Shown one piece after another: positions 28,223-40,360 of a DNA stretch of 64,000 nucleotides. The first letter of the stretch is position 1. Each line of letters starts with the position of its first letter. The notes beneath the pieces were generated by a model, which was not told the DNA's origin, ran no database searches, and worked only from the letters and a program-made list of their open reading frames with translations. This stretch comes from Neoarius graeffei (Eukaryota; Chordata; Actinopteri; Siluriformes; Ariidae): contig NC_083587.1 of NCBI RefSeq assembly GCF_027579695.1, positions 55,605,021 to 55,669,020 of the forward strand, in the 5' to 3' direction. The position numbers were made by a program, and so were the translations under genes.

Positions 28223-28445
28223 AATATTTAAATAATATTGGCTGATGTTAAGTGGTATATCAGATATATTCCACCGAGCTAGCATGATATGAAATGAGTT
28301 AAAGACGAGTAGCTGAATGGAATATATCTGATAGACCATGAAAAAAAGCCAGCCAATATTACTATTATAGACCCCTTCGTAGTAAACATTATTCATACGT
28401 AAGCGGAAATTGCGCGTGCAGCCTGGACTCAAAAAAGACTCAGAA

Positions 28446-28892
28446 ATGCCTAGTTGTTGTGTTTTCGGGTGTCAGAATTGTAGCAGTAATGGGGTTAAAA
28501 TGTTCAGAATTCCAGCAGGATCTCACCCATTCCAAAAAAATCGCCGACGTCTATGACTACAAGCCATCAAAGGTGTAGACTGGGATGAAAGCACGATCAA
28601 AAATGCGTGGGTTTGCAGCACCCACTTCATCACAGGTAAGATCAGGCTATTTATTAAATCTTTCTTTTTTATTCTTTCTAGTCTTCATTTATTGATGTAG
28701 CAAAATACTTTGTTAACGTTTGTCTGATTAGCTGGGTCATAGTTACACAATGTAATGAATATTGTTAGCATGTTAACTTAGCTTTGCATGTAATTTTGTT
28801 TGTAGGAGAGGTCTCGCTTGACTCAAGCAGTCCAGATTTTGTGCCATCATTATTTGTGTATGCCGAAAATCACAATTCTAAAGCAAGGATCA
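28446..28892 (+). pseudogene. THAP-domain protein, 5' exons (transposon-encoded)
   Basis: Exon 1 (28446-28635) encodes a THAP zinc finger: MPSCCVFGCQNCSSNG with the two cysteines, the FRIP motif, and WVCSTHF with the Cys and His of the C2CH site. A TGA at 28554-28556 replaces the conserved Trp. Exon 1 ends at a donor (CACAG/GTAAG); exon 2 starts at 28806 after TTTGTAG and continues in frame with GEVSLDSSSPDFVPSLFVYA. Near 28893 the Rex3 LINE cuts it off. In living elements THAP binds the transposon ends. It is 80 bp from the left end of the element. A host THAP gene is less likely because of the inverted ends and the partner gene. Confidence 0.8.
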
Positions 28893-28913
28893 TCTCGTCT
28901 CGTCTTCTTCCGC

Positions 28914-30660
28914 TTATCCGGGACCGGGTCGCGGAGGCAGCAGTCTAAGCATGGAAGCCCAAACTTCCTTTTCCCCAGACACCTCAGCCAGCTCCTCGGG
29001 AAGAACACCGAGGCGTTCCCAGGCCAGCCGAGAGACATAGTCCCTCCAGCGTGTCCTAGGTCTTCCCCGGGGCCTCCTCCCGGGGGGACATGCCTGGAAC
29101 ACCTCCCCAGGGAGGCGTCCAGGAGGCATCTGAAAAAGATGCCCGAGCCACCTCAGCTGGTTCCTCTCGATGTGGAGGAGCAGCGGCTCTACTCCAAGCT
29201 CCTCCCGAGTGACTGTGCTTCTCACCCTATCTCTAAGGGAGCGCCCAGCCACCCTGCGAAGGAAACTCATTTCAGCTGCTTGTATCCGCGATCTTGTTCT
29301 TTCTGTCATTACCCAAAGCTCATGACCATAGGTGAGAGTCGGAACGTAGATCGACCGGTAAATTGAGAGCTTCGCCTTTTGGCTCAGCTCCTTCTTCACC
29401 ACGACGGACCGGTAAAGCGACCGCATCACTGCGGAGGCTGCACCGATCCGCCTGTCGATCTCACGCTCCATCCTTCCCTCACTCGTGAACAAGATCCCGA
29501 GATACTTAAACTCCTCCACTTGAGGCAGGACTTCTCCACCAACCTGGAGAGGGCAAGCCACCCTTTTCCGGTCGAGAACCATGGCCTCGAACTTGGAGGT
29601 GCTGATTCTCATCCCAGCCGCTTCACACTCGACTGCAAACCGCCCCAGTGCATGCTGAAGGTCCTGGTTTGAAGAAGCCAACAGGACAACATCATCCGCA
29701 AAAAGCAGAGATGAAATCCTGTGGTTCCCAAACAGGATTCCTTCCGGCCCCTGGCTGCACCTAGAAATTCTGTCCATAAAAATTATGAACAGAACCGGTG
29801 ACAAAGGGCAGCCCTGCTGGAGTCCAACATGCACTGGGAACAGGTCTGACTTACTGCCGGCAATGCGAACCAGACTCCTGCTCCGTTCATACAGGGACCG
29901 GACAGCCCTTAGCAAAGAGCCCCGAACCCCATACTCCCGAAGCACCCCCCACAGAATAACACGGGGGACACGGTCGAATGCCTTCTCCAGATCCACAAAG
30001 CACATGTGGACTGGTTGGGCAAACTCCCATGAACCCTCGAGCACCCTATGAAAGGTATAGAGCTGGTCCAGTGTTCCGCGACCAGGACGAAAACCGCATT
30101 GTTCCTCCTGGATCCGAGGTTCGACTATTGGTCGAATTCTCCTCTCCAGTACCCTGGAGTAAACTTTCCCTGGGAGGCTGAGAAGTGTGATTCCCCTATA
30201 ATTGGAGCACACTCTCTGGTCCCCTTTCTTAAAAAGAGGGACCACCACCCCAGTCTGCCACTCCAGAGGCACTGTCCCCGACCGCCACGCGATGTTGCAG
30301 AGGCGTGTCAACCAAGACAGCCCCACAACATCCAGAGACTTGAGATACTCAGGGCGGATCTCATCCACCCCCGGAGCCTTGCCACCGAGGAGCTTGCAAA
30401 CCACCTCAGTGACTTCGGCTTGGGTAATGGACGAGTCCACCTCTGAGTCATCAGCCTCAGTCTCCTCAGTGGAAGACATGACGGTGGGATTGAGGAGATC
30501 CTCAAAGTATTCCTTCCACCGCCCGACAATGTCCCCAGTCAAGGTCAACAGCTCCCCACCCGCACTGTAAACAGTGTTGGCAGAGTACTGCTTCCCCCTC
30601 CTGAGGCGCCGGATGGTTTGCCAGAATTTCTTCGAGGCCGACCGATAGTCCTTCTCTATG
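28914..30660 (-). pseudogene. Rex3 reverse transcriptase, downstream part
   Basis: About 580 uninterrupted codons to the native stop at 28914-28916. It contains WKEYFEDLLNP at the start of the RT region, then KAPGVDEIRPEYLK, NYRGITLLSLPGKVYSR, CFVDLEKAFDRVPR (catalytic Asp), GLQQGCPLSPVLFIIFMD and SLLFADDVVLLAS (active site). The C-terminal part has LTYGHELWVMTERTRS and the RWLGHLFQMP / RPRGRPRTRWRDYV tail. The frame is cut at 30660 by the BEL/Pao insertion and resumes at 39030. Called a pseudogene because it is interrupted and lacks the endonuclease, although this part has no stop. Confidence 0.93.
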
Positions 30661-30665
30661 GCCTC

Positions 30666-30997
30666 TGTAGTGTCACGGAAGCTTCAATTAATGAACACGA
30701 CGTAATTGTCTTTGTGAACTTTTACTGAACACAATGCTGCAGCGTTACAAAGAGGAAAAATATAATTGGGCAATACAAACAACCCACATCGGCATCTTTT
30801 ACTTCGGAGATTCATTTCCTAAAAAAAAAACGTCAATGCACACAAGCATTTCCTTAAATCGGGCTTCAAAATAAAAGCACTTCCTGTTCACGTAAATAAA
30901 ACAAATCAATCAAAATTTAACTAACATTCATTTACATAATTTCTACAACAAAATATAATGACTGCTTGTCTAATATTAGCCTCAATAATTTACAACA
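30666..30997 (-). repeat. 3' LTR of the BEL/Pao element
   Basis: 332 bp; on the transcribed strand it starts TGTTGTAAATTATTGAGG and ends CCGTGACACTACA (TG..CA). It appears identical to the copy at 38693-39024. Confidence 0.95.
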
Positions 30998-31008
30998 TCC
31001 TCCCGCCC
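30998..31008 (-). promoter_or_regulatory. polypurine tract
   Basis: On the reverse strand GGGCGGGAGGA directly precedes the 3' LTR, where the primer for plus-strand DNA synthesis is expected. Confidence 0.75.
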
Positions 31009-31042
31009 GATGAACAGGTGTTCATATCGATTCACTTATTAC

Positions 31043-38671: not shown

Positions 38672-38689
38672 TCCCGGGTTTCGGCACCA
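38672..38689 (-). promoter_or_regulatory. primer binding site for tRNA-Phe
   Basis: On the reverse strand TGGTGCCGAAACCCGGGA lies 3 bases inside the 5' LTR. It is the exact complement of the 3' end of vertebrate tRNA-Phe (..TCCCGGGTTTCGGCACCA, from memory of that tRNA). It would prime minus-strand DNA synthesis. Confidence 0.9.
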
Positions 38690-38692
38690 AAA

Positions 38693-39024
38693 TGTAGTGT
38701 CACGGAAGCTTCAATTAATGAACACGACGTAATTGTCTTTGTGAACTTTTACTGAACACAATGCTGCAGCGTTACAAAGAGGAAAAATATAATTGGGCAA
38801 TACAAACAACCCACATCGGCATCTTTTACTTCGGAGATTCATTTCCTAAAAAAAAAACGTCAATGCACACAAGCATTTCCTTAAATCGGGCTTCAAAATA
38901 AAAGCACTTCCTGTTCACGTAAATAAAACAAATCAATCAAAATTTAACTAACATTCATTTACATAATTTCTACAACAAAATATAATGACTGCTTGTCTAA
39001 TATTAGCCTCAATAATTTACAACA
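38693..39024 (-). repeat. 5' LTR of the BEL/Pao element
   Basis: 332 bp, apparently identical to 30666-30997. As the upstream LTR on the reverse strand it should carry the promoter, but I cannot point to a clear TATA or start site. Confidence 0.95.
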
Positions 39025-39029
39025 GCCTC

Positions 39030-39284
39030 CCCGAACTCCTCCCAGTTCCGAGTTTTTGCCTCCGCAACTGCCCGAGCTGCAGCACGCCTGGCCTGCCGAT
39101 ACCCGTCGGCTGCCTCAGGAGTCCCGGAGGTCAACATGGCCCGATAGGACTCCTTCTTCAGCTTGCCGGCATCCCTTACTTCCGGTGTCCACCACCGGGT
39201 TCGGGGATTGCCGCCACGACAGGCACCGGAGACCTTGCGGCCACAGCTCTGAACAGCTGCGTCCACAATGGAGGTAGAGAACAT
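39030..39284 (-). pseudogene. Rex3 protein, upstream part beyond the BEL/Pao insert
   Basis: About 85 codons, MFSTSIVDAAVQSCGRKVSG through NWEEFGEAV, the linker between endonuclease and reverse transcriptase in Rex3. It runs in frame into the GCCTC target duplication and continues at 30660 on the other side. The endonuclease is missing upstream. Confidence 0.88.
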
Positions 39285-39606
39285 GGTCCACTCAGACTCA
39301 ATGTCCCCCGCCTCCCTTGGGGGATGGAAAGGAAAAATTGTGTGCCCTCACTCTAAATGCCAACTTGCGTTGACTGCTCTAACCTAGCTCCCGCCCCGTT
39401 CAGTTTCATTTCTGCTCTCTGCCTCTTGCTTTTTACGCAGCTCTGATTTCTCTTAGCTGCACTCTTTACACTATCATTCCTTTCATGCCATTCCCTCCTG
39501 CAAATTGCTGTTTAGTGTTGGTATTTGCTGTTGTAGCTAAAGCCACATTGCCATCACATCACTGGCATAATTTGATTAAAACAAAATGAATATGAATGTC
39601 CCATTG

Positions 39607-39917
39607 TTAATCAAGTTGTACATGCCCGCACATAACATAATCATATGCGTCTAAAGACTTGTAGGCACGAAGTTTTTCGTGGGTGTACACTGAAGTCTTG
39701 TCAATAAGGTACGAGTATATATCTGGCCATTGTATACCAGGGAACTTACTAACATCGTCCGTCCACTCTTTAATTAAATGTGGATCCGGTAGGTGATGTC
39801 CACTTGTTAGAGTTAACTTATTTATGTAGCATTCTCGATCTTGTAACGACAATTGTTTTGCATAATCTGACAGCTCATAATGCCGGTCTATGGGCAGCGC
39901 CATTGTTTCTGAGTCCA
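39607..39917 (-). pseudogene. second gene of the two-gene transposon (SWIM-protein type), first exon
   Basis: On the reverse strand, starting about 55 bp inside the right end of the element, MALPIDRHYELSDYAKQLSL leads into FPGIQWPDIYSYLIDKTSVY and KLRAYKSLDAYDYVMCGHVQ. This order matches the forward gene at 49289 (FPDISNYLVLQTSFYT, KAWKSTEAYNFFVCGWV). In fish proteins that I remember, this N-terminal region precedes a SWIM zinc finger and a YqaJ-type nuclease; neither is present here. The frame stops soon after GHVQ. A frame opening 8 codons further upstream uses the inverted repeat itself. Confidence 0.65.
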
Positions 39918-40360
39918 GGCTGCGCGCGCATCCTGGCAACGGTCGGTTTGTTTACAAACATGCGAAGAGGTCTATTGTGCATACACATTCTATGGAACAA
40001 TATAATAATGATCTAATGAAGTTTTGGTAGCCTTTCAGGTGTTCAGTGCTTCTTTCTCTTTCAAATTTCTCTCAGAATCTTCTGTATTTAACGAAGCAAA
40101 CCTGGCGCCCGTGGTTTGTTTCGTTTGTTTCCATTCGCATCAGCTCTAATGTGTGACCTCATGTTGTCTTGACAACTATGCAATGTCATAAATCATATTC
40201 AACGCTCATTCTCCACTGGGTAGAGTGATGTAATACACGTAGGCTAAGCGATATGCTGACAATATTGCATGCTGTCAAACCAAATGAATGAAACCCGCTA
40301 GAAGGGAATAGAACACTTTTTTATTCCATCGAAAAAGTGTCCTGTATGTAAAATAATATT

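What the first reader, a model, noticed from the sequence alone, without database searches (positions are those of the whole stretch)
28229..40360. Five-level nested insertion
Each level is supported by its own sequence. Composite repeat B contains the THAP/SWIM transposon (inverted ends, AT flanks). That contains Rex3 (primer-site matches), which contains BEL/Pao (GCCTC duplication, 332-bp LTRs), which contains L2 (AAAGTT duplication). The order of events is therefore readable: composite repeat first, L2 last.
Basis: seen in the sequence. Interest (0 to 1): 0.75.

Follow-up and report, generated by a model that had tools for sequence, protein, structure and literature searches.

The report
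Five-deep nest of fish transposons
In a fish-like genome, five mobile elements lie one inside another, and the scars they left show the order in which they arrived; the nest looks real, but nesting of this kind is a well-known habit of transposons.

Summary
The five-level nest is real. Repeat B (28228-40354; sister copies B2 at 23764-25245, B3 at 61360-63427) holds a THAP transposon, 28369-39973, with inverted ends and an AT duplication; B2 and B3 lack it at that spot. It holds a 5'-truncated Rex3-like LINE, 28890-39328. Rex3 holds a BEL/Pao element, 30666-39024, with 332/332 identical LTRs and a GCCTC duplication. BEL/Pao holds a 5'-truncated L2-like LINE, 34317-36590, with an AAAGTT duplication. 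Order: B, THAP, Rex3, BEL/Pao, L2. Caveats: Rex3's candidate duplication is no better than chance; the THAP element is a 1.16-kb remnant that removing Rex3 would not make whole; its THAP domain was detected, the 'SWIM' domain was not, and ISL2EU membership is only partly met. New: a second L2 (about 25252-28222) lies between the right end of B2 and the left end of B1 with a 7-bp candidate duplication, so the nest probably sits in one half of a former B-B tandem. Every element is of a known kind except B, which I could not name. No fish genome could be searched, so family-consensus and misassembly tests were not possible.

The parts
28228..28368 (+). Left arm of repeat B copy 1 (B1), largely one long palindrome, ending in the AT duplication; the exact left end is uncertain by a few bases
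   Evidence: 90% and 84% alike to the left arms of B2 and B3, gaps left out; 28225-28370 folds with z = -8.4, 0 of 200 shuffles as stable
39974..40354 (+). Right arm of B1, starting with the second AT
   Evidence: Its last stretch (40238-40354) is 90% and 94% alike to B2 and B3, gaps left out
23764..25245 (+). B2, second copy of B, holding a 377-bp repeat (23898-24274) and a 3' fragment of an L2 (24519 to about 25125)
61360..63427 (+). B3, third copy of B, holding other material a little further on; its sequence runs across the THAP insertion point
28369..39973 (.). THAP transposon, ISL2EU-like, a 1161-bp remnant split by Rex3 (28369-28889 and 39334-39973)
   Evidence: Inverted ends, AT duplication, THAP domain
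28367..28368 (+). AT target duplication, left copy (right copy 39974-39975)
28448..28889 (+). Broken start of the THAP gene: exon 1, intron (limits by eye), part of exon 2; one stop in exon 1
   Evidence: Pfam THAP, E = 4.9e-9 on a peptide spliced by eye with the stop as X
39607..39951 (-). First exon of a second, convergent gene; its identity is recalled, no Pfam match
   Evidence: ORF; 0 families
28890..39328 (-). Rex3-like RTE retrotransposon, 5'-truncated, about 2075 bp without the BEL element; ends by eye
   Evidence: RT domain E = 7.7e-36 (piece included 18 bases of LTR); both Rex3 primer sites
28885..28889 (+). Candidate AAGGA duplication of Rex3 (other copy 39329-39333), weak
   Evidence: chance level
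30666..39024 (-). BEL/Pao LTR retrotransposon, 8359 bp with the L2 inside
   Evidence: 332-bp identical LTRs, GCCTC duplication; DUF1759, DUF1758, RT (below Pfam's cut-off), Peptidase_A17, H2C2, rve, DUF5641 in separate pieces
30666..30997 (-). LTR (3' in sense)
38693..39024 (-). LTR (5' in sense)
30661..30665 (+). GCCTC duplication, left copy (right copy 39025-39029)
34317..36590 (-). L2-like LINE, 5'-truncated, tail of TAA units at the left
   Evidence: RT domain E = 1.3e-40 (piece included 44 bases beyond the L2); AAAGTT duplication
34311..34316 (+). AAAGTT duplication, left copy (right copy 36591-36596)
25252..28222 (-). Second L2 (L2#2), set between B2 and B1, candidate duplication AATATTT (25245-25251 and 28223-28229)

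Best explanation
Five successive insertions of ordinary mobile elements into one spot. An unnamed repeat, B, came first. A THAP-type cut-and-paste transposon, probably of the ISL2EU group, entered an AT in B, and at some time lost its interior. A Rex3-like LINE was copied into it by target-primed reverse transcription and came out 5'-truncated. A BEL/Pao element integrated into Rex3, making a 5-bp duplication. Last, an L2-like LINE, also 5'-truncated, was copied into the BEL/Pao element, making a 6-bp duplication. Shown: the nesting, the duplications at BEL and L2, B copies without the THAP insert. Inferred: the enzymes and modes of copying, from the known behaviour of these families, and the time of the interior loss.
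For: Identical LTRs with GCCTC, and AAAGTT, both with low null fractions. One of three frames is open over the 70 residues across the empty BEL site in Rex3. B2 and B3 are paralogues without the THAP insert; the 12-mer right of the THAP element matches 11 of 12 in B3 just after the (TTA)n run that corresponds to the left flank, and nowhere else on either strand of the window. Gag-protease matches lie right of the L2 and RT, A17 and integrase matches left of it, in the order of a BEL pol gene on the minus strand. THAP domain; AT duplication as in ISL2EU.
Against: Rex3's candidate duplication is at chance level (0.32). AT is only two bases. By eye, the THAP gene does not continue as a gene beyond Rex3. 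The BEL RT match (26.1 bits) is under Pfam's cut-off of 29.6, and 1 of its 3 pieces has no match. The BEL frames are not in one register: the frame changes at about 34000, and by eye also between the two sides of the L2. No other genome, read set or library could be consulted.
Confidence: 0.92

Rival explanations
1. B is not a host. B2 and B3 are internally deleted, non-autonomous derivatives of one large THAP transposon reaching from 28228 to 40354, so the outermost two levels are one element.
For: B's arms flank the THAP element exactly, and deletion derivatives of DNA transposons are common (established knowledge).
Against: The inverted ends with AT on both sides lie inside B, at 28369 and 39973; B's own two ends share no inverted repeat beyond chance (8, 9 and 8 bases; null fractions 0.24, 0.08 and 0.25 of 300); B3 runs straight across the AT point.
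Confidence: 0.05
2. The nest is a misassembly: repeats from different places were joined by the assembler.
For: All parts are repeats, and no reads could be examined.
Against: Exact target duplications at BEL and L2, and an open frame across the BEL site in Rex3, would hardly arise from wrong joins.
Confidence: 0.03
3. Within the nest, Rex3 did not simply insert into an existing THAP remnant: the loss of the THAP element's interior and the arrival of Rex3 were one event, or the loss came later.
For: No convincing duplication at Rex3; about 3.7 kb is missing against the 4840-bp average of autonomous ISL2EU elements given in PMC4482050.
Against: Both pieces of the THAP element keep their ends in the right orientation; AAGGA, though weak, is present at both edges.
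Confidence: 0.25

Closest known systems
ISL2EU group of the PHIS (PIF/Harbinger-ISL2EU-Spy) DNA transposons
   Same: THAP-domain gene, a second gene, inverted ends, AT duplication; group present in teleosts (PMC4482050 and PMC9179366, passages seen)
   Different: Ends begin AGACC, not the usual GG; flanks read T-AT-T rather than A-AT-T; DDE and YqaJ parts are not left to test; 1.16 kb against an average of 4840 bp
Rex3 (RTE-related LINE of teleosts)
   Same: Both standard primer sites without mismatch, RT domain, 5' truncation
   Different: Tail reads GACGAGACGAGATGA rather than tandem GATG; duplication uncertain
BEL/Pao LTR retrotransposons
   Same: Pao peptidase (A17) profile, DUF1759, DUF1758, integrase, DUF5641, 5-bp duplication, TG...CA LTRs
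   Different: Interrupted by an L2; the frame breaks, so this copy cannot encode a whole polyprotein
L2-like LINEs
   Same: RT domain; 48% identical to the second L2 of the window (302 of 625 columns); 5' truncation, short tail units
   Different: Nothing notable; the clade name L2 is recalled and was not tested by a tree
Non-autonomous Helentrons (HINE, DINE-1-like), considered for repeat B
   Same: Palindromes at both ends, a microsatellite in the middle, AT-rich site (PMC4067079, passages seen)
   Different: No subterminal inverted repeat of 11-15 bp; best 8-9 bases, within chance; no Rep/Helicase partner was sought

Membership tests
ISL2EU | AT target duplication | tested here: met
   28367-28368 and 39974-39975; two bases only, and a TA reading one base away is possible
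ISL2EU | Transposase gene with THAP domain | tested here: met
   Pfam THAP E = 4.9e-9, one stop given as X
ISL2EU | DDE transposase core | not testable with these tools
   That part is missing from the remnant
ISL2EU | Second gene with YqaJ exonuclease domain | tested here: inconclusive
   Only a first exon is left; no Pfam match
ISL2EU | Terminal inverted repeats usually beginning GG | tested here: not met
   Ends begin AGACC; PMC4482050 says 'usually', so not strictly defining
Rex3 | Matches to RTX3-F3 and RTX3-R3 primers | tested here: met
   0 mismatches each
Rex3 | Tail of tandem GATG | tested here: not met
   Tail reads GACGAGACGAGATGA on the minus strand; feature as given in PMC3728117. 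I therefore say Rex3-like
Rex3 | Endonuclease domain | tested here: not met
   0 families in the upstream piece 39009-39347; expected in a 5'-truncated copy
BEL/Pao | Pao peptidase A17 and associated gag-pol domains in order | tested here: met
   A17 E = 6.8e-56 and others; RT under Pfam's cut-off
BEL/Pao | LTR pair with 5-bp duplication | tested here: met
   332/332 identical, GCCTC
L2 LINE | Non-LTR RT with short duplication and 3' tail | tested here: met
   RT E = 1.3e-40, LINE-1 and R2 RTs among 14 PDB matches, AAAGTT
L2 LINE | Place in the L2 clade by tree | not tested
   No reference set on hand; the name is recalled
Helentron/HINE (repeat B) | Subterminal inverted repeats of about 11-15 bp | tested here: not met
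   Best 8, 9 and 8 bases in the three copies, within chance

The most novel reading that the evidence does not exclude
Repeat B is an undescribed non-autonomous family with unlike ends (a long palindrome at one end, a weak hairpin at the other, no inverted ends) that forms head-to-tail tandems, perhaps by a rolling-circle route, and whose (TTA)n middle attracts later insertions: the three copies in the window each hold different foreign material at or near the same spot.
Probability: 0.2. Interest if true: 0.35.

Novelty: new member of a known kind. Interest (0 to 1): 0.2.

Why it matters
A clean nest gives a relative clock for the activity of five families in one genome: the BEL/Pao copy with identical LTRs is recent, and the L2 inside it more recent still. 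It is a good benchmark case for nested-repeat annotation. It does not change what is known about these families.

Tried and rejected
Rejected: B's arms as the ends of one large THAP element (see rivals). Not taken as proof: the AAGGA duplication of Rex3, since 32% of 2000 random trials of the same size also gave a 5-mer; in that call the Rex3 search itself started one base too high and listed no candidate, and AAGGA was found by eye and checked. Led nowhere: viral contigs searched for the B palindrome core (0), the second gene of the THAP element (3 pattern matches, 0 relatives), Rex3 (6 and 0) and a Rex3 junction peptide (93 and 0); genome contigs with the same peptide (595 and 0). These collections hold viruses and prokaryotes, so the misses say little about fish. 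Rfam on 23700-41000: 0 matches. Paper searches: (BEL/Pao and primer sites) gave nothing that I used. Helentron membership of B: no subterminal repeats.

Slips of mine: the B1 join was set at 28367 and 39973, one and three bases off the ends that I now use (28368 and 39976); the THAP and L2-fragment rows used wrong boundaries (best 0) and the fixed-end row for the second L2 gave only 1 (null 0.33), the 7-bp match appearing with 3 bases of slack (null 0.005); the line 'L2 dimer empty' was cut at other ends than the junction I use. In one search the second L2 was cut by me at 28222, so its alignment from residue 1 could not show where the L2 ends; one search repeated it with the frame carried on into B: the alignment then reached 28240, with 1 identity in the 6 added columns.
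Full report
What was checked. I read 26001-42000, looked for repeats, listed open frames and compared 26000-43000 with the whole window. The DNA looks like that of a teleost fish, from its repeat families; the species is not known to me. The window's own genome could not be searched: 9 of 9 genome-search runs did not complete.

Innermost levels. The BEL/Pao element lies on the minus strand at 30666-39024. Its LTRs are identical over 332 of 332 bases, begin TG and end CA, and are flanked by GCCTC on both sides. Searched as three separate pieces it shows, right of the L2, DUF1759 and DUF1758 (gag and protease region) and, left of the L2, part of the RT domain (26.1 bits, under Pfam's cut-off of 29.6), Pao peptidase A17, integrase zinc finger, integrase core and DUF5641; the piece 33999-34316 had no match. 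Beside the sense-strand 5' LTR lies TTTTGGTGCCGAAACCCGGG, which from recall is complementary to the 3' end of a vertebrate phenylalanine tRNA; not tested. The L2-like LINE at 34317-36590 is flanked by AAAGTT, has a tail of TAA units at its left end and an RT domain with E = 1.3e-40. The gag-pol of this BEL/Pao copy is broken by the L2 and by a change of frame at about 34000.

Middle levels. The Rex3-like element carries both standard Rex3 primer sites without a mismatch (primers read in a passage of PMC3728117) and an RT domain with E = 7.7e-36. Of three frames across the empty BEL site one is open over the 70 residues joined; the other two have stops. Its 5' end is truncated at about 39328 and its 3' end lies at about 28890, both by eye. 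The only candidate duplication, AAGGA, is at chance level: 32% of 2000 random trials gave a 5-mer in a search of the same size. That Rex3 lies in the THAP element therefore rests on the two pieces of that element on either side. The tail does not show the tandem GATG given for Rex3 in PMC3728117, so I write Rex3-like.

The THAP element. Its ends, AGACCCCTTCG and AGACCTCTTCG read inwards, match at 10 of 11 bases; a 25-nt stretch further in matches at 23 of 25. Of 495 random pairs of window segments, 1 scored as high as that stretch. Both ends are flanked by AT. Just inside the 25-nt stretch a gene starts on each side, pointing inwards. The left one is a THAP gene (Pfam E = 4.9e-9 on a peptide spliced by eye with its one stop as X); the right one has no Pfam match. 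From recall it resembles a SWIM/YqaJ protein of such elements, but neither domain is left to test. In passages of PMC4482050 ISL2EU has AT duplications, in most autonomous candidates a THAP-DDE transposase and a YqaJ protein, ends usually GG, and an average of about 4840 bp. This remnant of 1161 bp fits in part.

The outer level. B1 has two sister copies in the window, B2 (23764-25245) and B3 (61360-63427); over aligned bases the left arms are 84, 90 and 92% and the right ends 90, 94 and 95% alike in the three pairs. In B2 and B3 the spot of the THAP insertion is a (TTA)n run followed by TACAT. B3 goes on with CATACACACTCT where B1, right of the THAP element, has CATACACATTCT: 11 of 12, the only such match on either strand of the window besides itself. 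So B existed without the THAP element. B2 holds a 377-bp repeat in the (TTA)n run, and B3 holds other material a little further on. B's left arm folds into a long hairpin (z = -8.4); the right end folds weakly (z = -2.1, 8 of 200 shuffles as stable). Its two ends share no inverted repeat beyond chance.

A second L2 lies between B2 and B1. Its protein is 48% identical to that of the inner L2 (302 of 625 columns). With the frame carried on into B the alignment reaches only 28240, and its last 6 columns hold 1 identity, so the L2 stops near 28222, next to the left end of B1. At the other side its 3' end, shared with the L2 fragment in B2, begins at about 25251, next to the right end of B2. AATATTT stands at both edges (0.005 of 3000 random pairs match as well with 3 bases of slack), and the site is AT-rich, so this is a candidate duplication. 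Without the L2, B2 runs straight into B1. The nest thus probably sits in one half of a former B-B tandem.

How it works, and what it is. The mechanisms are those known for each family: cut-and-paste with a 2-bp duplication, target-primed reverse transcription with 5' truncation, LTR integration with a 5-bp duplication. These are inferences from family knowledge. The order B, THAP, Rex3, BEL/Pao, L2 is shown by the nesting. Nested transposons are well known: one search for 'nested transposable elements', 'teleost' and 'nested insertions' (at least two of three) found 31 papers, of which I saw 10 in the listing, among them two on tools for such cases. I ran no search for a report of this very nest. 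Passages of PMC7599744 name BEL/Pao, RTE, L2 and PIF-Harbinger among the families of ray-finned fish.

Verdict. Real, orderly, and ordinary in kind.

Noticed in passing
25252-28222, between B2 (to 25245) and B1 (from 28228): A second L2 sits at a B2-B1 junction with a 7-bp candidate duplication, implying a former head-to-tail tandem of B.
   Followed up: yes
28411-28435 and 39906-39930: The two genes of the THAP element both start just inside a shared 25-nt inverted repeat (23 of 25), as if each terminal repeat carried a promoter.
   Followed up: partly
42203-43816, 19235-20842, 50803-52414: Three Tc1-like transposons of about 1.6 kb flanked by TA; over 798 bases the first is 97% and 96% alike to the others; the first has a 312-residue transposase frame.
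   Followed up: partly
about 41723-42100: A repeat of about 380 bp with 19 further matches in the window above 60 bits, on both strands, at 82-97% identity; one copy sits in the (TTA)n of B2.
   Followed up: no
62139-62825: A repeat with ends CCCTTTTCCACTAC and GTAGTGGAAAAG lies inside the material that fills B3, a further nest.
   Followed up: no
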